This document shows, piece after piece, positions 19,705-33,505 of a stretch of 44,593 bases of DNA. The first letter of the stretch is position 1. The number at the start of each line of letters is the position of its first letter. The stretch is from a virus, in IMG/VR virus record IMGVR_UViG_3300021963_000221, positions 1 through 44,593 of that record; one strand, 5' to 3'. The notes under the pieces are model-generated. The model saw only the letters and a program-made list of their open reading frames with translations, was not told where the DNA came from and ran no database searches. The position numbers and the translations under genes were made by a program.

Positions 19705-22700
19705 TTATTCTTCTATAGGATTATCCCGCAAGTATTGTTGTCTCCACTCTTTTCTTCTTCTCTTATCTTCTTTGCTTTCTGTACTCATCTGTTTGTATTC
19801 TGCTGGATAATTTTCTTTCATATACCTCTTCAGTTCTTTGTCTACTTCTCTACTAAGTTGCTGTGATAAAGAGTTCATATTTTTCTTATTTGTATTTACT
19901 CTATCCAAGAATTTATTAGTCTTAGCTAACTGTTCCATCTTTAGTTCATTCTGAGCCATCTGTTCAAGTACTGCTCTTCTTTCTTCTGGATCAGATACTC
20001 TATCATTTCTATTTAAAGTAGATAAGCTTTTCTTAAGATCAGCAGTTTCTGTCTCTAGTTTTTCATATGATCCAATAGGATTAGTAGCAAGCATAGAAGA
20101 CTCTGAAAGCATTAAGCGTGGATTATACTTTAAAGTATTATACAACTTACGTTCTGTATCCATATAAGGAGCTACAGCTACGTCTAAACCTGTGTATAAA
20201 GCTGCAGCTGCAAAAATAGCAGGAGCGCCAGCAAGAAACTTAGGTGTCATCTCACTCTTAATACCTGAAGAATTCTCATAATAAAACTCACCTGTTAAAC
20301 CTTTATCATAAAGTGTAGTAATAGGATCAAACAAAGCTTGATTAGATGCACTGAAAGTTCCTGATACAGTACTCCAAGCTAACTGTTTAAATGTAGCTTC
20401 CCATCTTCCATCACCAGGTTGCTTAACAGGAGGAACAAAGAATGTTTTGTAAGACCAATCTGCTGCCCCAAGTACATTAAATGAACTTAATTCATCATAC
20501 ACACCTGACATTATTAATGCTGAGAACATAGCAGTTTTTAATTCATCTGCACAATCATCATCATCACACTCTGCTTGTTTAGAAGCAATAAACAACATTA
20601 AGTATTTAAATGCAAGTTTAGCAGCGGCTGCACTAGCTAAAGACATTCCTACATTCTTAAGTCTACGTTTATCTCCGGGAGAGATATTATCAAACCCTCC
20701 TCCTAGAGCTAACATCTTCGTCCTATCAAATAACGTTCTATTATATCCTCTTAGAATGTCTCCTGTATTTAACTGGTAACGAGTATCTCCGTACTTGTTT
20801 ATGGTCATAGGGGCTAACCACTTTTTCATATTCATCAATACTTCTAAAAGAAACTCTTTATGATAGAATGCTCTACCTCTTTGGAAATAGTTACCTTGAG
20901 TTCTTGTATAGTAAGTAAATATTCTATCCCTTATACCTTGTTCTAGTCTAGAAATATCTTGTACTTGTACTCCTTGTTTAAGGACTAGTCTTCCGTCTTT
21001 TTGATCGTATGCATCCCTAAGCTTAATTGTTCTTACTACTCCGTTCTCTACTATGTCAACATAGTATTGCTCTATGATTGCTTCAAAGACTGCAAGAGTA
21101 CTTATAGTTTCAAAAGCTCCACGAACTGCAAAACCCAAAGTATCAAAAGAAAGATTCCTTCTTATAAAAGTTTGATTAATTCTATGAGATTTTTCAGAAG
21201 CTATTGCAGCTGGGTTAGCTTCAAAGTGCATAAGCAAATCAGCATAGTAACTTACGTTAGCTCCACCTAAACTAATATCTCTTGCTGCTATCCAGGATTG
21301 TTTACTAATTGCTCTAGTAAGTGCTTTACTAAACTCTTTTTTACTTACTCCTGCAATACCTCTACCTAAGTAAACGTTCATTAAGTTGACCATTAAGTTC
21401 TTTATAGATGAAGTAGTATTTATCTGAAGTACTCTTCTACTACCTGCTTGCATTGCTACCCTAAGCGCTCTTACTGTTCCGTCTACAATAGAGTTTGTTC
21501 TTGTTCCGATAGCTTCACCATAGAAATCTTTTGCAATCTCATTGTCTATCATCTTAAGTGTGTTCGGATCTACTATGTTTTTTTCATCCAAGATATCTCT
21601 TGTAATAAAAACAGTAGGCATAATAGTCTTAAGGGCATCAAACTGCGAAGAGTATGCACCATACTTTGCAATGTTTCCTAAGATATCAAAAGATACTTCT
21701 GCTTCACTTAAAGGTGTAGTAAATCTAGTTCTAATTAACTGGCGTTTTCTCTTTTCAAACACTGATTGTTTTTCTTCAGGAGCTAATGCATCCATCTCAT
21801 CTGAAACATCAGGAAGGAAAGGAGCAATAATACTTTCATACAAAGCAGAGTAAGAACCTTTAGAGAAAGGACTTCTTAAAGCACTTTGAGTAGATTCCCA
21901 TAAAGTTTTTCTACTAGGTACTAAAGCATAACCCATTCTCTGACCTTTAGGAATAGATCTTTGAACATCTTCCTGTAAAGCAATGATGTCATCTAAAATA
22001 CTTCTCTCTTCTGCACTAAGTTTTGAGTATTCCTTATTTACAAATCTACCGTCTTGTGTCTCTCTAGGAGAAGGTTTGCCTGTAAATCTATAATCTTTAT
22101 TCTTAAACTTATCTTGAATAGTAGGAATAGCCCACTTAAATGAAGGTAACTCTGTATTTATAAACCTTGGATCATTAGGAACTGTCTCAGTCCACATATA
22201 TAAAGGCTTAGTAGTAGTGTAAGTTACTTCTTCTCCCCTCTGAGTCTTCTTTGTTTCTGTTGTTGTTATGTGGTTATTAATATACCAATCTGTTTTTACG
22301 TAACGTTTGTTTACTTCTTGACTAATAACATCTTGTTTATACTCTTCTAAGTCAGCAAATACACTTGCAGCTCCCATAGCAAGATCTATCTCAAGCAATG
22401 CCTTTGCCTTATCTTCTACAGAATCCATAAACTCTTGATCATTTTCTACTTGTGATCTTATAGTTCCTTGAATCTCTTGTACTTTTTCTGTATAATAACT
22501 TGTATTTTTTCTAGACTGTAAAGCACCTAACTCTTTAAATAAACGTTTTAGTTCTGTTTTATCTTCAATACTTAACTGTCTATCCTTGTTTACTTTAGAC
22601 TTTATATCTTCTATGTCTAATTGTATTTTCTTTAAGGTATCACGAAGTCCCTCAGTTCTTTCTACATCTGAACCTTGAATAACACCATCGTTGTCTCTAA

Positions 22701-25700
22701 ATCCAAGAACTGCATTAAATAAACGATCATATAACTCACCTAAATCAGTTTCGTATTGATTAGGATACTTAGCAAAAATCTCACGAATAGAATCAGTTAT
22801 GTTTTTCTGTTCCGCAAAAAACTCGTCTGTTAATTGTGATCTAGTATTCTCTTCATACCAAGCATTCCTTTCGGCTACAGCTTGATTATATTCGTTACGA
22901 TATCTTTCTTTATCTGCTAATAACTGTTGTGCTTTAGGATCTTTTTCAATCTGACTAGGTTCAAAGAAATCTGTTAGTTCTAGATTCTCTACTAAGTCTA
23001 ATCTTGCTTGTGCTTTCTTTACACGGTTTTCTACTTCTTTCTTCTCTGAAGACCACTCTGTCATCTTTGATGAGTAGTCGTAAGTAATAACATCTTCGTC
23101 TCTTCTTTCTTTCTTCCACTCTATAATAGAATCTGCTATTAGTCTTTCTTTGCTTCCTGCAGGCTTCTCATGACCATTGATATCATAGATAGACCCTAAG
23201 CGATTAAAGTCCCTTAGAAGTTCTTTAATACGGTCATTATCAGCAGGAACTTCTTGCTGAGCAATAGCAATCTCATCTAACAACTCTTGTCTAGCATTCT
23301 TAGCTTCAGGAATTAACTTACGTTGAATCTCATTGTACTCATCCGTATATGGACTCTGTGCGTACTTATCTAAGAAATCTTCTAAATCTAATCTTGCTTG
23401 ATCTGCTTTTGTAACATCTCCCTCTTCAATTGCTTTTTGCACTAAGCCTTCAAGTCTATCAAACTCGTTCTCGAACTCTGCATATAATAACTTAGTATTA
23501 AGTACTGCTTGTTTGATTGTTCTCTTCTTTCCATTCTCATCTAATACAGTCTTTTCTACTATACGATAGAATCCTTTGTATAGATTCTTAAAAGAGTCTA
23601 AGTTTATTGCAACAGATCCTCTAAGTTCTCTTAACCTGTTATAGATTTCACTTGCTCTAAAACTAAATGTCTGAGATGAAATAGAAGCTTCTGAAGTAGT
23701 CTTGTCTATTAGTTGTTTGATAAGTTGTATTGTAGGATTGTTAGCATGGATTGCTGTATTAAACTTCACACCCAACCAACTAGTTTCTTGTCCTACTACA
23801 GTATCGCCAGATAAAATTCTGGCAATGTTTTCTTCTGTAGGTTGAAAACTTACAAACTGTTCTAATTCTGTAATTCTTTTAGTTATTGCTCTTTCTAATC
23901 TTTTTTTACCTTTGGCTTTTGCATTTGCAAGTTGCTGTTGTAAAGATCCAATCTCTTCTGCATAAACCCTTTTAGCTTCTGTTACTGCTCTTGAGTCAAT
24001 CGCTTTAGCTAGTCTTCGTGCTACAGGTCTAACTACTTTGTTTGAAAAACTATCTTTAATAGAACTAATGCTACTTGTAGTTTCTTTTAACATAGAATCT
24101 AGGTTAGCCATAACAGCAAGAATACCTGGAACAGTATCTTCTAAAGCTTGCATTGCTTCTTCTCTTAGTGCTTCGTCTTCTATAGCACTAAAGTTATACA
24201 TGTTTCTAATCTTCTCGTTAAACTCTCTATAGTGACTCTCAATAGTTAAAGCAAGATTCTTAGCACTATTGTAAGCGGAAATGATAGCGTCTTCAGTAAA
24301 TTCGCCTTCGTTGTTGCTGTATACTTCTAACTGTGCTTCTACCTTTTTAAGCAAGAAAGTAGCACTCTTAAGGTAGTTTATACTTGCTTCAAGAATCTTT
24401 TTAGCTTCTGGAGAATCAATTTTTTCAAACTCTGCCTGAAGTAAATCTAGACTTCTATTGTTAGGATCAACTTCTTTTAAATATTTTTTAAGTTCAGACC
24501 ATGTTCTACCTTGTAAGTTTTTCTTTACAAAATTTACTAAGTTAGCTAAACTAGGAAATTTCTCTGTGTCTGTGTTTCCATTAGGATTATAAGCACTAGA
24601 GTTAAATCTTAAAGTATACTCTCCTTCTGTTTTGGGAATGTCTTCTAAAGACAACAGGTAATCTAAGTATTCGTTAACACTATTCTCTATCTCTTGTACT
24701 GTAGGTAGGTCAGAAAAGTTACCTAAGAAAAATTCTTTAATAGCATCTACTATCTTCTGTACAAATGAAGTATCCTTAAGTTGCTTTTGATACCTAATCA
24801 ACTGTCCTCTAAACTGAGGATTAGACATAAACTCACTTGCAAACTCTTCTACACTTGTAAAGCCATAGTTAGTAGAAAGAATAGGAAACTTCTTGAGGTA
24901 ACCTTCAAAGGCTACAGTCATCTTATTCTTAAAAGCAATCTCCTGTGGTGTAGTAGGTTCATTAAGAGCTTTAATAGTGTAAGAGTGCATTGCTTCGTGA
25001 ATAACATCTATAGCAAGTTTAGAGTTATCCATATCATCTAATACAGCCTTACCTATATAGATTGTGTTTGTCTTGTTGTCATAGAATGCTACTTGACTTC
25101 CTTCTTCTCCGATAGCCCTATCAAAGACTGCAAGCTTTAAAGAAGTGTTTACTTTTCCTAGGTCTTTAAGTCTACCTATAATTTCTTTTTGGAAGGGTTG
25201 TAGATTTTCAGAACTCTCTAATGCATCTAACACACTCAAGAGATCTAACTCTTCTATATTACCTAAGTTAGATACAATATCTCCAAAGTTTAAATTCTTT
25301 AGATCATCTAGGGTAACAGGATTTCTATCACTTGTAGTAGGCTTGTATTGAATCTTAAAACCAGTTTCTGTTCTTACTACTTTTGCACCAATAGCATCAA
25401 AGCGAGGATTTAAGTTAATCTCTGCTGCTACTGCACTAGCTTCAGTATAGTTAGAAAACTCATAGGTATTATCTACAGTTTCTGCTAACTCTTCTAGTTG
25501 TCTAGCACTTGCTAACTGTTCTTCTGTAAGATTTAAGTTAAGTAACTTGTCTACTGTCTCCATACTAGGTTCTCCTGAAAATCCTAAATCAGGAGTTCTT
25601 TCTGTATTAGTAGTCCAGTCAAACCCAAGTAATTCTTTAAAGCCCTCTGTATACATTGCATTGTATATGTCTATGGCTTCTTCTTTAGGATAGAAGCTAG

Positions 25701-25773
25701 TTAGTTGGTAGTACACATGAGATTCTACTCGTTTACCAGTTAAGGGAGATATGATTGATGCTCTACAAGCCAT
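19705..25773 (-). CDS. Giant virion protein with putative Zn-metalloprotease domain
   Basis: 2,022 residues. The N-terminal 250 residues have no recognised family. A gluzincin-like motif H259-E-A-M-H263 in an AIDVIHEAMHSYT context, with a downstream SVEEFASEF helix (E310 or E314 as third ligand), marks a putative zinc protease. Residues about 350-1300 are extended coiled-coil-like helices rich in Glu, Lys, Arg and Gln. Two hydrophobic Ala-rich segments near residues 1708-1728 and 1844-1868 suggest membrane interaction. It is one of three adjacent giant genes, including the virion RNA polymerase. crAss-like virions are known to carry giant cargo proteins that are ejected with DNA; protease activity and ejection are inferred here. 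Confidence 0.75.
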   Translation of the reverse strand: MACRASIISPLTGKRVESHVYYQLTSFYPKEEAIDIYNAMYTEGFKELLGFDWTTNTERTPDLGFSGEPSMETVDKLLNLNLTEEQLASARQLEELAETVDNTYEFSNYTEASAVAAEINLNPRFDAIGAKVVRTETGFKIQYKPTTSDRNPVTLDDLKNLNFGDIVSNLGNIEELDLLSVLDALESSENLQPFQKEIIGRLKDLGKVNTSLKLAVFDRAIGEEGSQVAFYDNKTNTIYIGKAVLDDMDNSKLAIDVIHEAMHSYTIKALNEPTTPQEIAFKNKMTVAFEGYLKKFPILSTNYGFTSVEEFASEFMSNPQFRGQLIRYQKQLKDTSFVQKIVDAIKEFFLGNFSDLPTVQEIENSVNEYLDYLLSLEDIPKTEGEYTLRFNSSAYNPNGNTDTEKFPSLANLVNFVKKNLQGRTWSELKKYLKEVDPNNRSLDLLQAEFEKIDSPEAKKILEASINYLKSATFLLKKVEAQLEVYSNNEGEFTEDAIISAYNSAKNLALTIESHYREFNEKIRNMYNFSAIEDEALREEAMQALEDTVPGILAVMANLDSMLKETTSSISSIKDSFSNKVVRPVARRLAKAIDSRAVTEAKRVYAEEIGSLQQQLANAKAKGKKRLERAITKRITELEQFVSFQPTEENIARILSGDTVVGQETSWLGVKFNTAIHANNPTIQLIKQLIDKTTSEASISSQTFSFRASEIYNRLRELRGSVAINLDSFKNLYKGFYRIVEKTVLDENGKKRTIKQAVLNTKLLYAEFENEFDRLEGLVQKAIEEGDVTKADQARLDLEDFLDKYAQSPYTDEYNEIQRKLIPEAKNARQELLDEIAIAQQEVPADNDRIKELLRDFNRLGSIYDINGHEKPAGSKERLIADSIIEWKKERRDEDVITYDYSSKMTEWSSEKKEVENRVKKAQARLDLVENLELTDFFEPSQIEKDPKAQQLLADKERYRNEYNQAVAERNAWYEENTRSQLTDEFFAEQKNITDSIREIFAKYPNQYETDLGELYDRLFNAVLGFRDNDGVIQGSDVERTEGLRDTLKKIQLDIEDIKSKVNKDRQLSIEDKTELKRLFKELGALQSRKNTSYYTEKVQEIQGTIRSQVENDQEFMDSVEDKAKALLEIDLAMGAASVFADLEEYKQDVISQEVNKRYVKTDWYINNHITTTETKKTQRGEEVTYTTTKPLYMWTETVPNDPRFINTELPSFKWAIPTIQDKFKNKDYRFTGKPSPRETQDGRFVNKEYSKLSAEERSILDDIIALQEDVQRSIPKGQRMGYALVPSRKTLWESTQSALRSPFSKGSYSALYESIIAPFLPDVSDEMDALAPEEKQSVFEKRKRQLIRTRFTTPLSEAEVSFDILGNIAKYGAYSSQFDALKTIMPTVFITRDILDEKNIVDPNTLKMIDNEIAKDFYGEAIGTRTNSIVDGTVRALRVAMQAGSRRVLQINTTSSIKNLMVNLMNVYLGRGIAGVSKKEFSKALTRAISKQSWIAARDISLGGANVSYYADLLMHFEANPAAIASEKSHRINQTFIRRNLSFDTLGFAVRGAFETISTLAVFEAIIEQYYVDIVENGVVRTIKLRDAYDQKDGRLVLKQGVQVQDISRLEQGIRDRIFTYYTRTQGNYFQRGRAFYHKEFLLEVLMNMKKWLAPMTINKYGDTRYQLNTGDILRGYNRTLFDRTKMLALGGGFDNISPGDKRRLKNVGMSLASAAAAKLAFKYLMLFIASKQAECDDDDCADELKTAMFSALIMSGVYDELSSFNVLGAADWSYKTFFVPPVKQPGDGRWEATFKQLAWSTVSGTFSASNQALFDPITTLYDKGLTGEFYYENSSGIKSEMTPKFLAGAPAIFAAAALYTGLDVAVAPYMDTERKLYNTLKYNPRLMLSESSMLATNPIGSYEKLETETADLKKSLSTLNRNDRVSDPEERRAVLEQMAQNELKMEQLAKTNKFLDRVNTNKKNMNSLSQQLSREVDKELKRYMKENYPAEYKQMSTESKEDKRRRKEWRQQYLRDNPIEE

Positions 25774-25810: not shown

Positions 25811-28800
25811 TTAACCTAAATCGCATGATTCTTCTAATCCTAAGGAATTATTTGGAGTATTAGTAGACTGCTGAACATCATAATTAGAAATACCTTCAGA
25901 TTTAATATCTTCAAGCATTTGTCTGTACAGAGTTGCATGTCTATCAATTGTTTCGTCTGAAACAGCTGCTCTATCTTCTCCCCTAGCTAACTGTGCTTTA
26001 ATTCTTTCTTTAGCTAACTCTGGGTTTAATTCCATTAACTTATATTGGATATTAGCTGAAGGAATTGCTTTTCTAATAGCTGTAATAAAAGGTCTTCTTT
26101 TTTCTTTAGTTAGGTTAGTTGTATCAAATACAACTTGTTTACCTTCTTTTATAGCTTGTATAGCTCTTTTAGCAGCTTCTTTGTAAATTTCTTTATCTTT
26201 AGATTTATTATTTATATCTCCTGTAAATTCAACTCTCATTGCATCAGGTTCTATAACAACTAAATTTTGTTGAGGAAGTGATTTTACAAAAGTAGATTTC
26301 CCACTTCCAGAAGTTCCTATAGGCAAGATAACATCAGGTTTATTTTGATTTCCTATAGTAGATGTTTTCTGTCTCAATTCAGCAACAACTTCGGATAGTG
26401 ATACTGCATGTGATCCCTGACCTCTATCCATAAGTTTTTTAGAGTACAAAAGATTAGCACCATCAAGTTTACCTTGATTAATTTGATCAAGTATCCATGT
26501 TCTTTGTTCTGGTTTTACCTCTTGAAACTTATTACCAAGTAACCAATCTTTGTAATTCTGAGCAGCTTGAGCTACACTACTAGCTTTTATAGTTCCTTGA
26601 TATCCTCCTTCACTCCATGGATTACCAAAGTGTTCGTTAGCTGTAGCTGCAGAGGTTCTCATAGTATTAATTCCTTCTGCTGTATAAACTGGTCTAGACT
26701 CTAAGTCTCCTTTCCATTCTTTACTTAAATCTATCTTAGGTTTAACTTCTGTAATTTCAGCAACTTGAGTAGATAGTCCAGTAATTTTTCCTAACTGTGC
26801 AGCTAACTCAGGAAGTTTTAAATCAAAGGTTACTGCATTAGCATATACAGATGGGTAGTTTGTCCTAATGTTACCTAAGTTAAATAATCTATGAGGTATA
26901 TTAAGCAATTCGTTTAAGTAACTCATACCTGCAAGATAGATAGGCATTACTGTTTTATATTCTTCGTTTTCTAGATTCTTTCTAATGTCTTTATCTGCTT
27001 GAGTAGTATATTGCTCGTAAGCTTCAAAAGGTACTACTTGATTTAAACCATACGAGTTATTAGAGAAACCAAATTGAATAAAGTTTGCTAATCCTAGATC
27101 TTTAAAAAACTGAGATACTTCAGGTCTTACGTCATTCATACCCGCAAGGAAAGCTTTTTCGTATTCATTTATAAGATAAGAATCTAAGTTAGAGTTTCTT
27201 AGTTTAAAGATAAGGAACGGTGTAGATACCGTTGGCTTCTCTTCGTATAAGTTCTCAATTAAAAGATTCTTATTTATGTCTGGATAGTTTTCTTTGAGTG
27301 CTTTTAATCTCGCTAATAAGTTATTAGAGTTATTTTTTGCTAAGAATCCTTTCTCTCCAAAAACTTTAACTCTAACAGAATTACCTTCACTATCTACTCC
27401 TTGAGAATGTATAGTCAGTAAGATAAGATTATCTTTAATAGTCTTTGCTGCACTTACTTGATCATCTTGGGTATATAACTCTGATAGATTTAAAAAACGA
27501 TTGATTGCATTAAATACCATCCTATGTCCTGTAACAGGAAAAGCCTTATCAAGTAATCCTGATACAGTATCTGCTACGTTAAATGCAGAAAGAGCAGAAC
27601 GTTTAGTTAAAATGTCTAACCCCTCTTTATTAAAGGAATCAGCTATCTGTGCATACGTAAACTCTTCTGCTTCTTTTTGGTAAGAACTTTGGTAGCTTTT
27701 TGTATTGTAATCTACTAAAGCATTTAACTGTTGAATCTTACTTTGTCTGTCTCTTAAGTTTTGCAACATAGCTAAACTTGCAATGTCCTTTAATACTGAA
27801 GACTCTGTAGAGAAGAATGCATCTTTAACACTAGACTGAGTTAAAAGACCATTTGTAATGGCTCTAAATGGAGCTCTTTTACCTTGTTCTTTCTTAGCGT
27901 TTTTTATTTGCTCTACAGTCTCTCTAATCTCTTTATCAGATAATACAAGTTTATCAAATATGTTTTGTAAGGTTCTAGTTGCTCTTCTACTTTCTAATTG
28001 TTCTTTAGTGTAGTGCATCTCTGATTGGATGATACCTCTGTTCATCTCTTTCAATGCATACTTTACTATAGGACGATTAAGAAACTCTAAGGATTCTTTT
28101 ACAGGTGTACCTGAAAGAATCATAGCATGGAATAAAGGCGTTTTAACTTTATCTAGTCCTAACAAGATTAACCAATCTTCCTTAGCGATATCTACGTGCC
28201 CGTTAATACTCTCACTGATTACACGAGAGATACTAGTGCCATCTACAAGATCCTGCATACCTAAGGCAACACTACCGTCTTGCATAATATGTTGAGGCAA
28301 TATGTAGGAATTAGCAGCCTCTACATCAACGTATCTTAGACCAGCTATCTGGAATTCTTTTTGAATTGTGTTGATCTTAGCATCTATACTTAATGCTTTC
28401 TTAGCTTCGATGTTGTCAGAGTATACTCTGTTAGAAACTAAAAGATTAAATACTCCAGTAGAAGTTATTGGGTTGGAAGGAAGCTTATCAGCTTCTGCTT
28501 TTAGAATAGTGTTGGTATTAGGAAGTACAATCTTATTGTAGTTTTCTTCTAATCCCATAACACCTGCCATAACATTAATCAAACGGTTACCAGCAGCTGC
28601 CTCAAACTTATTAAAGTTAGAGTTTTCTGTTTCAAAGATTTCTCTCTGTAACTCCTTAAAGATCTTAAGTCCTTCTGCTACTTCACCTTCTTTTAACAGG
28701 TTTCTAATCTGTGCGTACTTGCTTTTTAGTTCTGCTTCTTTCTGCTCCCTGTCTAAATCTTTTGTTTGAAGTTCTTCTAGGTTAAAAGTTTTTCCAGTCA

Positions 28801-31800
28801 TACCAAGTAACGTAGACTCTTTAGTCTCCAACGCTTCTTTTAATGCCTGTATTTCTTTTTGTAACTCCTTAGATTTCTGATAGTTAGGAAGCTCTTCTAC
28901 AATACTCTGTATTTCTTTCTTTGCTTGACGCAGATATCTAAGTAATTGTACACTCTCTTGTCTTGTTGGTAATTCACTCTTGTACTGATCTAAACTGTAA
29001 TTTTCAGTTTCTACTAAGTTTCCTTGTCTGTCTATTACAGGTTCAAACATAGTTAACTTATCTATATCAAAGTCTCCTCCTGACTTAGCTACAATTCCTG
29101 CAGGTACAACAATAACAGGACCAGCACTAGTAGGTAAGAATTCCCTTACACGCATATACTCCATAGAGTTAAATCCTTGTACAGGAATACGTACTCCTAC
29201 TAGAATTAATTGTTTAGAGTTTTGTTCTACCCACTCCATCTCTTTGAGATTATCTGAAGTTAGGATAGCATTTAAGTTTTCTATTGTGCCTATGGTTTTC
29301 CCATTAAACTTTAATCTAAGTAAGCCAGAATGTTTCTTAGGATTAAAAGCAATCTTAACGTCTGCAGGTTGTGTTTTACCGTTCTCTACTCTATAGTTTC
29401 TAAGACCGTTAATACCAAACTTTTTAATTTGAGTCTCAGTAGGTTTCTTAAATCTTTGTTTACCTAATCCTGTAGAAGCTACTTGTACGTATGCTTCTCC
29501 ATGTAGCTTCTGAGAAATAATTCTGTTATTGATTACAGATAAGATAATGCCTTCAATTTCTTTTCTATTCTTAGCAGAATCAAGAGGATATAAAAGGTTA
29601 CCATTCTCGTCTACTTGAATATACCTCTTCAAAGAATCACTAACATTTCTGTTATCCATCTCTGTACGTAGGAAAGAAATAAACTTCTTATCATCAAACC
29701 CTGACAAACTACCATCAGGATTTTCTTCAAGACCTAGTTTGTTATACAGTTTTAGTTTTTCTATACCTACAAGATCTCTTAAGCTTTGACCATAGTCATT
29801 ATATAGTTGCTCTATCTTAGCTGCAAAAGAAGGACTTAGTTCTGTTAAAGAACCATCACTATAAAAGTCTCCGAATAACAACTTAACCATCTGAGTAGCT
29901 AAGGTTGCTTCATTCTTAAACTTAGGAGCAATATACTGTTGTTGTTTAAGATTAACTAGGTGCAGAGTAGTTACGTTATTCTCACCAATAGCTTCGTTTA
30001 CTTTTAACTTTAACTGTTCATTCTTAGAAGTTAAAGGTTGCTCTACGTAGAAATCTAAACTTTCTCCGTAGTTAGAAGCTTTTGATCCAGACTGAAAAGT
30101 AGCATAGTCAATGTCTTGAGTTAGCATACTTTTATTCAAACCCTCTAATTGTGTTCCTTGTATCATAGAAGGAATCAAGGGAGCCAAAGAATACTTGTGT
30201 AAAGCAACTAATCTAGGATCTTCTACTACTGAACCATAATGTCCTAACTTTAATGGAGGAAATCCTACATAGTTAATAGTATCCTTAAGGTCAGCTATCT
30301 GCTCATCTCTTTCTTCTGATTGAGGTTCTTGGTATAATCTAAATAACTCTATCTCATTAGTGTAAGCGTCTTCTTGTTCTTGACTCCATTGACCTATATT
30401 AATTAGATAGTTTCTGTAGAAATCAAGTGTAACAAGACCTTGTGCATCTGATTCCTTTGGGTTGTTTACATACTCCTTGTAAGTAACGTCATCAGGAAGG
30501 CCCATAGCGTTTCTGTAAGCTTCCCAATCTTCGGGTTTGAATGTATTTACATCATTGAAGATTACTGTCCTTACAGTGCGTCTAAATGGCTTAGTGATAT
30601 TAGATAAGACCTTCTGTAATCCATTAGTATAAGGACTACTGTTTAAAAAAGTATTAACTACAGGATTGTCATGAGGAACATATCCAGGAGAAGAAGTAAA
30701 GGGAATGCGTTTAAATACTTCTCGGTAGTCACCCTTAACTTGGAAGTTAGCAATGTCTCCTACAAATATTTTAAAGAACTCTGCTTTATGTACAAAGTCA
30801 TTTATAAAGTAGTTAGCAATAACATAGTCAAAGTTGTTTGCATTGATTGGTATCTTATTGATACCGGTATCCATAAACTTCTTTTGATTAAGCCTAGCAA
30901 TTACTGTATTTAATCTTTTTTCTGGAGAAGTAGGATTAGGCAATAACAAGTCATCAGGATATACAGCTTCCATAAGAGCTGTCTTAACTGCCTGAGTCTG
31001 TTGTTGAATGTACTCATCTAAGTACGTTTTTAAGTCTCCCTTAATGTTCTGATATGCAGCATCAATCTCTTCTTCTGTAGTAGCATTTACTAAACTTGAA
31101 TACAAGTCATCAGGAAGAATATCTTTAAATATAAAAAGATTCTTACCATTCTTATGGTAAGTACTCTTACCGGGATTACGTAGTAAGTCTTTAAGTCTTA
31201 CTGCTTCGCTCTTTAGATATTCAGTAAACTGTTCTACTACTGCATTACTAGCTTGAGGAACAACGGTTTCCCGTTCATTCATAATCTCCTCATCTAGTTT
31301 AAAGTAAATTCTATTTTCAGGTTTACCTGCTAGTACAGTAGCATAAGAAGTTCCCTTGTCACCAAATCGTACGTTTTCTACTATACCTTGAGAGAAGAAA
31401 GAAAAGAAATCTTGAAGGATCTTATCTTCAGGAGTTAAGCTAGTAGTAACTGAATTCTTTTTATGGTTACCAGCTATACTTACACCTGCATAGTTTTGAA
31501 TGTTTATACTAAAGGGTTCATTACTATAAGGAATGTTTTTCTTTTTAAATACAACTTCCCCTGTAAGTTCTGCTTGATTAAGTTGATCTATAATAGTCTT
31601 TAAGTCTTTTCTCTTAGTACTTACACCAAACATCTTTTCTAGCCAAAGAGATCCTATTACATTAGGGTTCTTTCTAATATCTAAATGTGCAAATTCTGGC
31701 TTAGCAATTAACTCACTATAACTACCTACACTATTGAGTGTATTAGAAATTTGGGTTAGATAAAAGTATTGAACCCTATTGTATTGTAATTTGTTTTCTG

Positions 31801-33505
31801 GGTTATAGTAAGAGCCAGAAGCAAACTCCCTCTCAAATTGTCCGTAAAACTTAACTAAAGTAGTTACTGAATCAGACAATCTTTTAAGAGGTCCTGGACC
31901 TTGATAAGTGTTAAGATAAGATAATAACTCTGTAACACTTGTCTTATCCTGACTATTAGCAAGTTTAGTATAAATAGAAGCAGTTTCTCCAGCAGTAGCT
32001 ATTAAGAACTCTTTAAATGCTGTTTTATTTGCTCTATATAAAGAGTTAGTAGGAATAATTCCTATGGCTTTATGAAACTTAAAAAGCTCATTCAATAAAG
32101 CAGTACCTTCAGTAGTGTCAAAATACTTAGGAGTTCTAATCTTAGTCATGTAAGTAGAAACCCTACTTGCAAGTGTTTCATTTCCGTAAGTAAATAACGA
32201 TACAAGTTTCTTTATATCTACAGCAGAACCATCTTCTAAGACTAAGTTAGGATTAGCAGAAGCATAGTCGGCATCAAAGTAATTAATAAGATTGGTTACA
32301 GTCTTTGTACCTAGTTCAAATACTTTAGTAGTGTAACTATTACCTACTATCTTCATTGATAGTTTTACTGCAGGAATCTCAGGCATAGACATTACCTGCT
32401 GAAAAGCTGCTGCAAGATTAGTATTGCTTAATGAAACATTTGTGTTGTCTGGTTCAGGTAATCTCTCGTATAAATTTCTAAACTGAGGATAGATAGTACT
32501 TAAGCTTTTGATCTCTTCCTTTAATTGATTATAGTCTGTTATACCTGTAAGACTTGCAGAAAGAAGATTCCAGTTCTTAGAGAAATCTCCTGTAACAGGT
32601 AAACCCAAAACAGAACCTAATACTACAAAGTCCTTTATAGATCTTTTACCTGAAGCTACTTCTTTTTGTTCTTTTGCAGAAAGTTTTTTATACTGTGGTA
32701 AGGCTTGAACTACTTTAATTACTTCAGCAGAAGCAAGTTCTTTCTGCCCTCTATCATGAGCATTCTTATTGTAAGTGCTTACTCCTCCTGTAAAGTCTTC
32801 TACGTCTATATCTGAATCATCTTTTTCTGTGTTAGATTCTTCTACACCTTTAAGCCCAAAAGTAGGCTCTTGAGCCTTAAACCAATCAACTACTGTGTCC
32901 CAATTTTTAGTTAGTAAGATTATATTAGTTGCTTGCTGTTGTTCTGCCTCTGTTACAGAGTCAGGGTCAGCCATAATCTTAGCCTTAATCTTTTCTTTCT
33001 TAGCATTAAGTAATCTAAGTACTTCAGAAGGTCCATAGTTTGCACTTAAAAAAGAAAGATTATCAAAAATTTCTGTACTCTCTTCTTCATTAAATATAAT
33101 AGGATCACCTTCTGTAGGAATACTAAGTACTATGCCATTAGGAGATTGTTCTGCTTGTAGGTTTCCTTGTTCTCTCTTTCTAATTTTTTCAGCTAACTCT
33201 TCTAAGTCTTGTTTTAAAAAGTCTATAGTGCTTCCTATCTCTTCTTCTCCGTACTTATCTTGGAACTCAGGCATAAGAGTTCTTGCAATAGCTTTTAAGG
33301 CTACAGTACGATCCCCTTCAGCTATAACATCAAGCACTTCATTATATAAAGGATTTACTTCCTCTTTGCCATCTACATCTATTTTATCTAAAGGCAAGTA
33401 GTTGTTTTTTCTCCATAAAAATAAAGCTAGTGTAGAACTACCAACAACTTTACTAAGTTCTGCAAACTCAGGAGTACTCTCATCAGGACAGGTTATTCTT
33501 GCCAT
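25811..33505 (-). CDS. Virion RNA polymerase (crAss-like, DFDID type) with C-terminal DUF4326-like and P-loop kinase-like domains
   Basis: 2,564 residues. The catalytic loop SGGDFDIDK has Asp1478, Asp1480 and Asp1482, preceded by GVRIPVQGFNSMEYMR and VVPAGIVAK. This is the signature of the crAss-like virion RNA polymerase (phage phi14:2 gp66), related to the two-barrel QDE-1-type polymerases, which enters the host and transcribes early genes. After the polymerase part, residues about 2275-2390 contain a DUF4326-like domain (NEHFGNPWSEGGY, then WILDQINQGKLDG and GSHAVSLSEV). Residues 2390-2550 form a polynucleotide-kinase-like domain: Walker A GTSGSGKST (2397-2405, Lys2403), PDAMR and VVFDTTNLTKEKRR. 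The start is the ATG 5 bases after a -7 box. Confidence 0.9.
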   Translation of the reverse strand: MARITCPDESTPEFAELSKVVGSSTLALFLWRKNNYLPLDKIDVDGKEEVNPLYNEVLDVIAEGDRTVALKAIARTLMPEFQDKYGEEEIGSTIDFLKQDLEELAEKIRKREQGNLQAEQSPNGIVLSIPTEGDPIIFNEEESTEIFDNLSFLSANYGPSEVLRLLNAKKEKIKAKIMADPDSVTEAEQQQATNIILLTKNWDTVVDWFKAQEPTFGLKGVEESNTEKDDSDIDVEDFTGGVSTYNKNAHDRGQKELASAEVIKVVQALPQYKKLSAKEQKEVASGKRSIKDFVVLGSVLGLPVTGDFSKNWNLLSASLTGITDYNQLKEEIKSLSTIYPQFRNLYERLPEPDNTNVSLSNTNLAAAFQQVMSMPEIPAVKLSMKIVGNSYTTKVFELGTKTVTNLINYFDADYASANPNLVLEDGSAVDIKKLVSLFTYGNETLASRVSTYMTKIRTPKYFDTTEGTALLNELFKFHKAIGIIPTNSLYRANKTAFKEFLIATAGETASIYTKLANSQDKTSVTELLSYLNTYQGPGPLKRLSDSVTTLVKFYGQFEREFASGSYYNPENKLQYNRVQYFYLTQISNTLNSVGSYSELIAKPEFAHLDIRKNPNVIGSLWLEKMFGVSTKRKDLKTIIDQLNQAELTGEVVFKKKNIPYSNEPFSINIQNYAGVSIAGNHKKNSVTTSLTPEDKILQDFFSFFSQGIVENVRFGDKGTSYATVLAGKPENRIYFKLDEEIMNERETVVPQASNAVVEQFTEYLKSEAVRLKDLLRNPGKSTYHKNGKNLFIFKDILPDDLYSSLVNATTEEEIDAAYQNIKGDLKTYLDEYIQQQTQAVKTALMEAVYPDDLLLPNPTSPEKRLNTVIARLNQKKFMDTGINKIPINANNFDYVIANYFINDFVHKAEFFKIFVGDIANFQVKGDYREVFKRIPFTSSPGYVPHDNPVVNTFLNSSPYTNGLQKVLSNITKPFRRTVRTVIFNDVNTFKPEDWEAYRNAMGLPDDVTYKEYVNNPKESDAQGLVTLDFYRNYLINIGQWSQEQEDAYTNEIELFRLYQEPQSEERDEQIADLKDTINYVGFPPLKLGHYGSVVEDPRLVALHKYSLAPLIPSMIQGTQLEGLNKSMLTQDIDYATFQSGSKASNYGESLDFYVEQPLTSKNEQLKLKVNEAIGENNVTTLHLVNLKQQQYIAPKFKNEATLATQMVKLLFGDFYSDGSLTELSPSFAAKIEQLYNDYGQSLRDLVGIEKLKLYNKLGLEENPDGSLSGFDDKKFISFLRTEMDNRNVSDSLKRYIQVDENGNLLYPLDSAKNRKEIEGIILSVINNRIISQKLHGEAYVQVASTGLGKQRFKKPTETQIKKFGINGLRNYRVENGKTQPADVKIAFNPKKHSGLLRLKFNGKTIGTIENLNAILTSDNLKEMEWVEQNSKQLILVGVRIPVQGFNSMEYMRVREFLPTSAGPVIVVPAGIVAKSGGDFDIDKLTMFEPVIDRQGNLVETENYSLDQYKSELPTRQESVQLLRYLRQAKKEIQSIVEELPNYQKSKELQKEIQALKEALETKESTLLGMTGKTFNLEELQTKDLDREQKEAELKSKYAQIRNLLKEGEVAEGLKIFKELQREIFETENSNFNKFEAAAGNRLINVMAGVMGLEENYNKIVLPNTNTILKAEADKLPSNPITSTGVFNLLVSNRVYSDNIEAKKALSIDAKINTIQKEFQIAGLRYVDVEAANSYILPQHIMQDGSVALGMQDLVDGTSISRVISESINGHVDIAKEDWLILLGLDKVKTPLFHAMILSGTPVKESLEFLNRPIVKYALKEMNRGIIQSEMHYTKEQLESRRATRTLQNIFDKLVLSDKEIRETVEQIKNAKKEQGKRAPFRAITNGLLTQSSVKDAFFSTESSVLKDIASLAMLQNLRDRQSKIQQLNALVDYNTKSYQSSYQKEAEEFTYAQIADSFNKEGLDILTKRSALSAFNVADTVSGLLDKAFPVTGHRMVFNAINRFLNLSELYTQDDQVSAAKTIKDNLILLTIHSQGVDSEGNSVRVKVFGEKGFLAKNNSNNLLARLKALKENYPDINKNLLIENLYEEKPTVSTPFLIFKLRNSNLDSYLINEYEKAFLAGMNDVRPEVSQFFKDLGLANFIQFGFSNNSYGLNQVVPFEAYEQYTTQADKDIRKNLENEEYKTVMPIYLAGMSYLNELLNIPHRLFNLGNIRTNYPSVYANAVTFDLKLPELAAQLGKITGLSTQVAEITEVKPKIDLSKEWKGDLESRPVYTAEGINTMRTSAATANEHFGNPWSEGGYQGTIKASSVAQAAQNYKDWLLGNKFQEVKPEQRTWILDQINQGKLDGANLLYSKKLMDRGQGSHAVSLSEVVAELRQKTSTIGNQNKPDVILPIGTSGSGKSTFVKSLPQQNLVVIEPDAMRVEFTGDINNKSKDKEIYKEAAKRAIQAIKEGKQVVFDTTNLTKEKRRPFITAIRKAIPSANIQYKLMELNPELAKERIKAQLARGEDRAAVSDETIDRHATLYRQMLEDIKSEGISNYDVQQSTNTPNNSLGLEESCDLG

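What the first reader, a model, noticed from the sequence alone, without database searches (positions are those of the whole stretch)
24985..24999. HExxH protease motif in a 2,022-residue virion protein
H259-E-A-M-H263 within AIDVIHEAMHSYT, with a downstream SVEEFASEF helix, is a plausible gluzincin Zn-protease site near the N-terminus of a giant coiled-coil protein next to the virion polymerase. It may be a virion maturation protease or may act on a host target after ejection.
Basis: partly seen in the sequence, partly recalled or inferred. Interest (0 to 1): 0.65.

Follow-up and report, generated by a model that had tools for sequence, protein, structure and literature searches.

The report
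Ejected zinc-protease domain beside phage polymerase
A giant protein that this crAss-related phage probably packs and injects with its own RNA polymerase carries a genuine zinc-protease-type domain, related to one in the injected polymerase of phage N4 and in other phage ejection proteins; it is a newly placed member of a known group, and what it cuts is unknown.

Summary
The HExxH motif is real: HEAMH lies at aa 259-263 of a 2,022-aa minus-strand ORF (24985-24999). It is not chance: expected count in this protein is 0.004. H259, E260, H263 and a downstream glutamate, E310, are the only invariant columns among 17 divergent phage proteins, and HExxH is invariant among 62. The stretch is the most conserved 120 residues of the protein. 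A 174-residue model (pLDDT 82) puts HExxH on one helix and E310 on another behind three strands, a gluzincin layout, and the best fold matches are mostly zincins. The protein is the homologue of Cellulophaga phage phi14:2 g065, the virion 'RNA polymerase associated protein', and sits next to the vRNAP. Sequence profiles tie the domain to the HExxH 'C1' domain of phage N4 vRNAP and to T7-like ejection proteins, the polyvalent-protein metallopeptidases of Iyer et al. 2017. So the motif reading is right. 'Maturation protease' is less likely: relatives sit in intact ejected proteins, so action after ejection is favoured. The domain is lost or moved to another giant protein in several crAss lineages, so it is not essential to the polymerase. 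Target, zinc binding and activity are untested.

The parts
19705..25773 (-). 2022-aa ORF, vRNAP-associated giant protein (homologue of phi14:2 g065 / crAss001 gp49)
   Evidence: hhalign of its C-terminal 1640 aa with the crAss g065/gp49 family 99.7%, E 1.7e-26 over 990 columns
24739..25176 (-). zincin (gluzincin-type) domain, about aa 200-345
   Evidence: alignments A1, A3, A9; most conserved 120-aa stretch of the protein starts at aa 203; models; profile matches
24985..24999 (-). HEAMH, aa 259-263: predicted zinc ligands H259 and H263, general base E260
   Evidence: invariant in A1, A3 and A9
24844..24846 (-). E310, predicted third zinc ligand
   Evidence: invariant in A1 and A3, over 90% in A9; in helix 308-317
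24865..24867 (-). Y303, seven residues before E310; candidate catalytic Tyr
   Evidence: present in all window-clade members and many others, absent from the N4-type members; PPEP structures in the hit list carry Y178F / Y189F mutants next to the general-base mutants
25528..25773 (-). N-terminal domain aa 1-82, similar to residues 2-95 of phi14:2 vRNAP (6VR4); candidate packaging or ejection tag
   Evidence: VIA Z 8.0, 76 residues, 22% identity; hhalign E 9.8e-6, 82%
20374..23796 (-). C-terminal region (about aa 660-1800, approximate) shared with crAss vRNAP-associated proteins
   Evidence: hhalign
25811..33505 (-). 2564-aa vRNAP homologue (DFDID catalytic motif)
   Evidence: BLAST to phi14:2 g066, 5e-22
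25934..26332 (-). P-loop kinase-like domain at the C-terminus of the vRNAP ORF (aa 2392-2524)
   Evidence: Pfam AAA_33 9.1e-18, Zeta_toxin 1.6e-5; phrog_505 polynucleotide kinase 6e-12

Best explanation
The segment is the active-site helix of a gluzincin-type zinc endopeptidase domain (aa about 200-345), with H259, H263 and E310 as zinc ligands, E260 as general base and Y303 as likely transition-state tyrosine. It belongs to the phage polyvalent-protein metallopeptidase group that includes domain C1 of the N4 vRNAP. It sits in the vRNAP-associated cargo protein, is packaged intact, is ejected with the vRNAP and DNA, and acts after ejection. I think cutting the ejected phage cargo itself (in cis, or in trans on its partners) is slightly more likely than cutting a host protein. 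Shown here: motif, conservation, predicted fold, homology, synteny. Inferred: zinc binding, catalysis, packaging of this protein, timing, substrate. The parts taken alone: zincin domain about 0.93, active protease about 0.8, action after ejection about 0.65.
For: Invariant H, E, H and E across 17 divergent proteins; HExxH invariant and E114 (=E310) over 90% in 62. Of 88 loci from two later scans, 85 showed HExxH near the match; two of the other three are open at the contig's 5' side close to the domain. Some scan patterns contain HExxH, but EF[IF]AE[FA]F does not. dN/dS in the domain is 0.025-0.067. Domain model pLDDT 82, pTM 0.79; top matches are selecase, ArdC, Spartan, LF, PPEP and IrrE zincins. 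Independent profile: phi14:2 g065 domain against phrog_2206 (N4-type vRNAP) 7.7e-8 at positions 2081-2232, window-clade L026 5.8e-6, nearest relative L017 0.002. A9 profile against PDB sequences: ejection proteins 9sfn 1.7e-17, 8vb2 3.9e-16, 23sg 7.5e-11, N4 vRNAP 9pnr 9.2e-6. Model aa 152-353 against N4 vRNAP 2126-2350: Z 7.2. N4 vRNAP is packaged unprocessed (PMC5512222). phi14:2 g065 is a virion protein.
Against: No zinc binding or proteolysis has been shown for any phage member I could find. Structural Z scores are 7-8, within what unrelated models can reach, so the case rests on sequence profiles plus motif. The window domain alone hits no Pfam or PHROG model. Zinc geometry could not be measured (no coordinates). 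Y303 is not conserved in N4-type members. crAss001, cr128_1, cr111_1 and DAC15 keep the vRNAP but lack the domain, so the activity is dispensable or replaceable. Cargo versus host target is a judgement, not a result.
Confidence: 0.5

Rival explanations
1. Injected effector: the domain cleaves a host protein (defence, envelope or transcription factor) early in infection.
For: Patchy presence and movement between giant proteins of the RNAP block fit a host-specific role. Iyer et al. list host targeting as an option for these MPTases (PMC5512222). Same fold as known injected protease effectors.
Against: No target known; the domain is more conserved than the rest of the protein, less usual for an arms-race effector; present in ejection proteins of phages of very different hosts.
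Confidence: 0.3
2. Virion maturation protease: it processes virion proteins during assembly.
For: Phage P1 DdrB, with a related MPTase, is processed before packaging (PMC5512222). The protein's homologue is in the virion.
Against: N4 vRNAP is packaged whole although it carries the domain. PhiM1 gp48 is modelled across the domain in the mature virion. The domain is absent from the vRNAP block of crAss001, which makes intact virions.
Confidence: 0.12
3. Structural or regulatory module: the zincin fold serves as a docking clasp for the polymerase, catalysis being secondary or lost.
For: In N4, C1 clasps the RNAP and the CTD dampens transcription (PMC12633501).
Against: The active-site residues are invariant or nearly so across distant families, including proteins with no RNAP.
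Confidence: 0.1
4. Peptidoglycan-acting domain that helps the ejected channel through the wall, as proposed for the same region of PhiM1 gp48.
For: PhiM1 authors call gp48 Asp268-Asp528 'endolysin/exotransglycosidase-like'.
Against: That region holds HEAAH...YGLSDTHEF and matches the zincin profile at 3.9e-16; zincins of this shape are generally endopeptidases on proteins (general knowledge).
Confidence: 0.04

Closest known systems
Zincin-like MPTase domains of phage polyvalent proteins (Iyer et al. 2017, PMC5512222)
   Same: HExxH helix plus downstream Glu helix behind three strands; giant packaged proteins; two of four relatives scanned carry LPD39
   Different: that paper's main text does not mention crAss; here the domain is on the vRNAP-associated partner, near the N-terminus, and no LPD was detected in this protein
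C1 domain of phage N4 virion RNA polymerase (aa 2124-2375; PDB 9PNR/9PNT)
   Same: homologous by profile and similar fold; companion of a virion RNAP
   Different: fused to a T7-like RNAP instead of lying on a separate protein; the rest of this protein shows no sequence relation to the N4 C2 region; the Tyr at -7 is missing in N4
Internal virion / ejection proteins of T7-like podophages (PhiM1 gp48 8VB2, 9SFN, 23SG)
   Same: same domain by profile, E down to 1.7e-17; ejected proteins
   Different: no RNAP in these proteins; in PhiM1 the domain is inserted into the ejectosome hub
Cellulophaga phage phi14:2 g065
   Same: same position beside the vRNAP; domain about 32% identical, HExxH, Tyr and Glu kept
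   Different: shorter (1421 aa)
PPEP / lethal-factor-type (M34-like) gluzincins
   Same: fold match Z 5-7 and, from my own knowledge of those enzymes, the same Tyr-x6-Glu spacing
   Different: secreted bacterial enzymes; 9-20% identity over the aligned part

Membership tests
Phage polyvalent-protein zincin MPTase (incl. N4 vRNAP C1) | HExxH plus downstream Glu, in two helices | tested here: met
Phage polyvalent-protein zincin MPTase (incl. N4 vRNAP C1) | sequence homology to known members | tested here: met
   relatives significant: phrog_2206 7.7e-8, 5.8e-6, 0.002; A9 profile to 9pnr 9.2e-6; the window sequence alone finds no PHROG
Phage polyvalent-protein zincin MPTase (incl. N4 vRNAP C1) | in a giant protein that is packaged and ejected | tested here: inconclusive
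   2022 aa in the vRNAP block; homologue g065 is a virion protein; not shown for this phage
Phage polyvalent-protein zincin MPTase (incl. N4 vRNAP C1) | zinc binding and proteolysis | not testable with these tools
   needs purified protein
crAss vRNAP-associated protein (g065/gp49) | homologous C-terminal region and position next to the vRNAP | tested here: met
   hhalign E 1.7e-26; synteny
SprT-like (Pfam PF10263) | reaches the Pfam gathering score | tested here: not met
   window: no hit; relatives listed at most 20.1 bits against a cut-off of 25.6; best E in the set 7.5e-5
ArdC-type MPTase-PolyVal (Pfam PF18818) | reaches the Pfam gathering score | tested here: not met
   best 0.037, in two relatives; none for the window
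Peptidase M34 (lethal factor / PPEP) | fold with HExxH, Glu ligand and Tyr seven residues before it | tested here: inconclusive
   Z 5-7; A9 profile to LF 3.9e-6; Tyr present here; no curated M34 model passed for the window
Order Crassvirales | hallmark TerL and MCP homologous to crAss phages | tested here: inconclusive
   neither was identified in the window; relatives' TerL 31% identical (E 8.6e-24) but no MCP match to phi14:2

The most novel reading that the evidence does not exclude
Phages with two unrelated virion RNA polymerases (N4-type and crAss-type), and ejection proteins with no polymerase, have all drawn on one ejected protease family as a standard tool of genome entry: the protease cuts the ejected cargo inside the cell, for example freeing or activating the polymerase from an autoinhibited, packaged state. 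In crAss relatives the cargo proteins also carry exchangeable N-terminal tags for packaging or ejection.
Probability: 0.2. Interest if true: 0.8.

Novelty: new member of a known kind. Interest (0 to 1): 0.5.

Why it matters
[quoted passage not shown] An ejected protease in that complex, shared with phage N4 and T7-like ejection proteins, gives a concrete residue (E260 or its equivalents) to mutate in phages with working genetics. It also suggests re-reading the 'endolysin-like' domain of PhiM1 gp48 as a zincin.

Tried and rejected
Pfam and PHROG scans of the whole protein and of the window domain found nothing significant; a single-sequence scan of viral contigs found nothing, so an alignment with phi14:2 and cr10_1 was used. 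A1 as scan query was too divergent; A7 found no relatives. Homology of the rest of the protein to the N4 C2 region: no signal. SprT-like and ArdC families rejected as names (below gathering score). The N-terminal tag profile did not reach phi14:2 vRNAP by hmmsearch, only by hhalign, BLAST and fold. Foldseek gave no PDB match below 0.001. The VIA list for the domain-only model does not show the N4 chain, although the list for the 420-aa model does. Two key papers, Yutin 2018 (10.1038/s41564-017-0053-y) and Drobysheva 2021 (10.1038/s41586-020-2921-5), are not held, so a prior mention of a protease there is not excluded.

Full report
Observation. The 2022-aa ORF runs 25773 to 19705 on the minus strand and has HEAMH at residues 259-263, bases 24999-24985. 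The protein has only 10 histidines, so 0.0044 HExxH are expected by composition.

Context. The ORF follows a 2564-aa ORF that matches the virion RNA polymerase g066 of Cellulophaga phage phi14:2 (5e-22, through the DFDID catalytic motif). In phi14:2 the gene in the same place is g065, 'RNA polymerase associated protein', a virion protein by MS/MS. tblastn of the 2022-aa protein against 50,697 phage records found only phi14:2 g065, over residues 228-325, the HExxH segment. Profile comparison of the remaining 1640 residues with the g065/crAss001 gp49 family gives 99.7%, E 1.7e-26 over 990 columns, so the two are homologous beyond the domain. The phage is crAss-related; longer relatives have a terminase 31% identical to that of phi14:2 but no detectable major capsid match, so I do not place it inside Crassvirales.

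Domain family. A permissive tblastn with residues 210-345 brought in giant proteins of other crAss-like phages, N4-like vRNAPs, Vibrio phage Vp_R1, Rhizobium phages and Helicobacter prophages (many of these hits weak on their own). The alignment of 17 has four invariant columns: H259, E260, H263 and E310. An alignment-based scan gave 25 further loci, all with HExxH; two more scans gave 88, of which 85 showed HExxH near the match. In 62 domain sequences H, E, H are invariant and the Glu over 90%. Some scan patterns include HExxH, so part of this is selection; the pattern EF[IF]AE[FA]F does not. Within the window's clade the segment starting at residue 203 is the most conserved 120-aa window (0.51 against a mean of 0.32), and dN/dS in the domain is 0.025-0.067 (large dS in several pairs makes these rough).

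Fold. The 420-aa model has strands 213-217, 229-232, 237-241, then helix 250-271 with HExxH and helix 308-317 with E310. A 174-aa domain model from 62 sequences has pLDDT 82 and pTM 0.79, about 90-96 over the active-site helices. The best Foldseek and VIA matches are mostly zincins: selecase, ArdC, Spartan, lethal factor, PPEP, IrrE, and in the viral library phi14:2 g065 (3.6e-6) and Vibrio phi 1 vRNAP (1.4e-3). Scores are modest (Z 7-8), so the sequence evidence carries the weight: the phi14:2 domain against the N4-type vRNAP profile, 7.7e-8; window-clade relatives 5.8e-6 and 0.002; the 62-sequence profile against N4 vRNAP 9PNR 9.2e-6 and T7-like ejection proteins down to 1.7e-17.

What is known. 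Iyer et al. [quoted passage not shown] The N4 cryo-EM study names the motif in C1 and shows the CTD damps transcription (PMC12633501). Neither text mentions crAss. Four crAss papers that I could search mention no protease in these proteins; the two most relevant ones were not available.

Function. The full catalytic set under strong constraint argues for an active enzyme. N4 vRNAP is packaged whole, and PhiM1 gp48 is modelled in the virion across the domain, which argues for action after ejection. crAss001, cr128_1, cr111_1 and DAC15 lack the domain; in cr116_1, crAss002 and crAssphage LMMB (the last only E 0.046) it lies in another giant protein of the same block. So it is neither essential to the polymerase nor bound to one cleavage site in one protein. 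Cargo processing and host targeting both fit; I lean to cargo by a small margin.

Side finding. The N-terminal 82 residues match the N-terminus of phi14:2 vRNAP (6VR4; Z 8.0; hhalign 9.8e-6), while the N-terminus of the window's vRNAP matches that of Suoliviridae vRNAP-associated proteins (hhalign 1.5e-8). These E-values are for single pairwise comparisons. Tags exchanged between the two cargo proteins would suggest a packaging or ejection role; this is inference.

Noticed in passing
window 25528-25773 (-) and 33245-33496 (-): N-terminal ~85-residue domains seem exchanged between vRNAP and vRNAP-associated protein in different crAss lineages (window associated protein with phi14:2 vRNAP; window vRNAP with Suoliviridae associated proteins). 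Candidate packaging or ejection tags.
   Followed up: partly
window 25934-26332 (-): The vRNAP ORF ends in a P-loop kinase-like domain (AAA_33 9.1e-18, polynucleotide kinase PHROG 6e-12, Zeta_toxin 1.6e-5).
   Followed up: no
PDB 8VB2 (PhiM1 gp48) residues 376-511: Called endolysin/exotransglycosidase-like by its authors, but matches the zincin profile (3.9e-16) with HEAAH and YGLSDTHEF.
   Followed up: partly
L003 8671-9963; L013 8863-10137: Two successive zincin domains in crAss-like cr10_1, and two HExxH sites in the vRNAP of Vibrio phage phi 1.
   Followed up: no
L051, L052, L053: In cr116_1, crAss002 and (weakly) crAssphage LMMB the zincin sits in a different giant ORF near the vRNAP.
   Followed up: partly
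L048 1089-9335: A cyanobacterial phage (Leptolyngbya phage Lbo-JY46) has a giant ORF matching the phi14:2 g065 C-terminal region (4e-21), with no zincin match in its genome.
   Followed up: no
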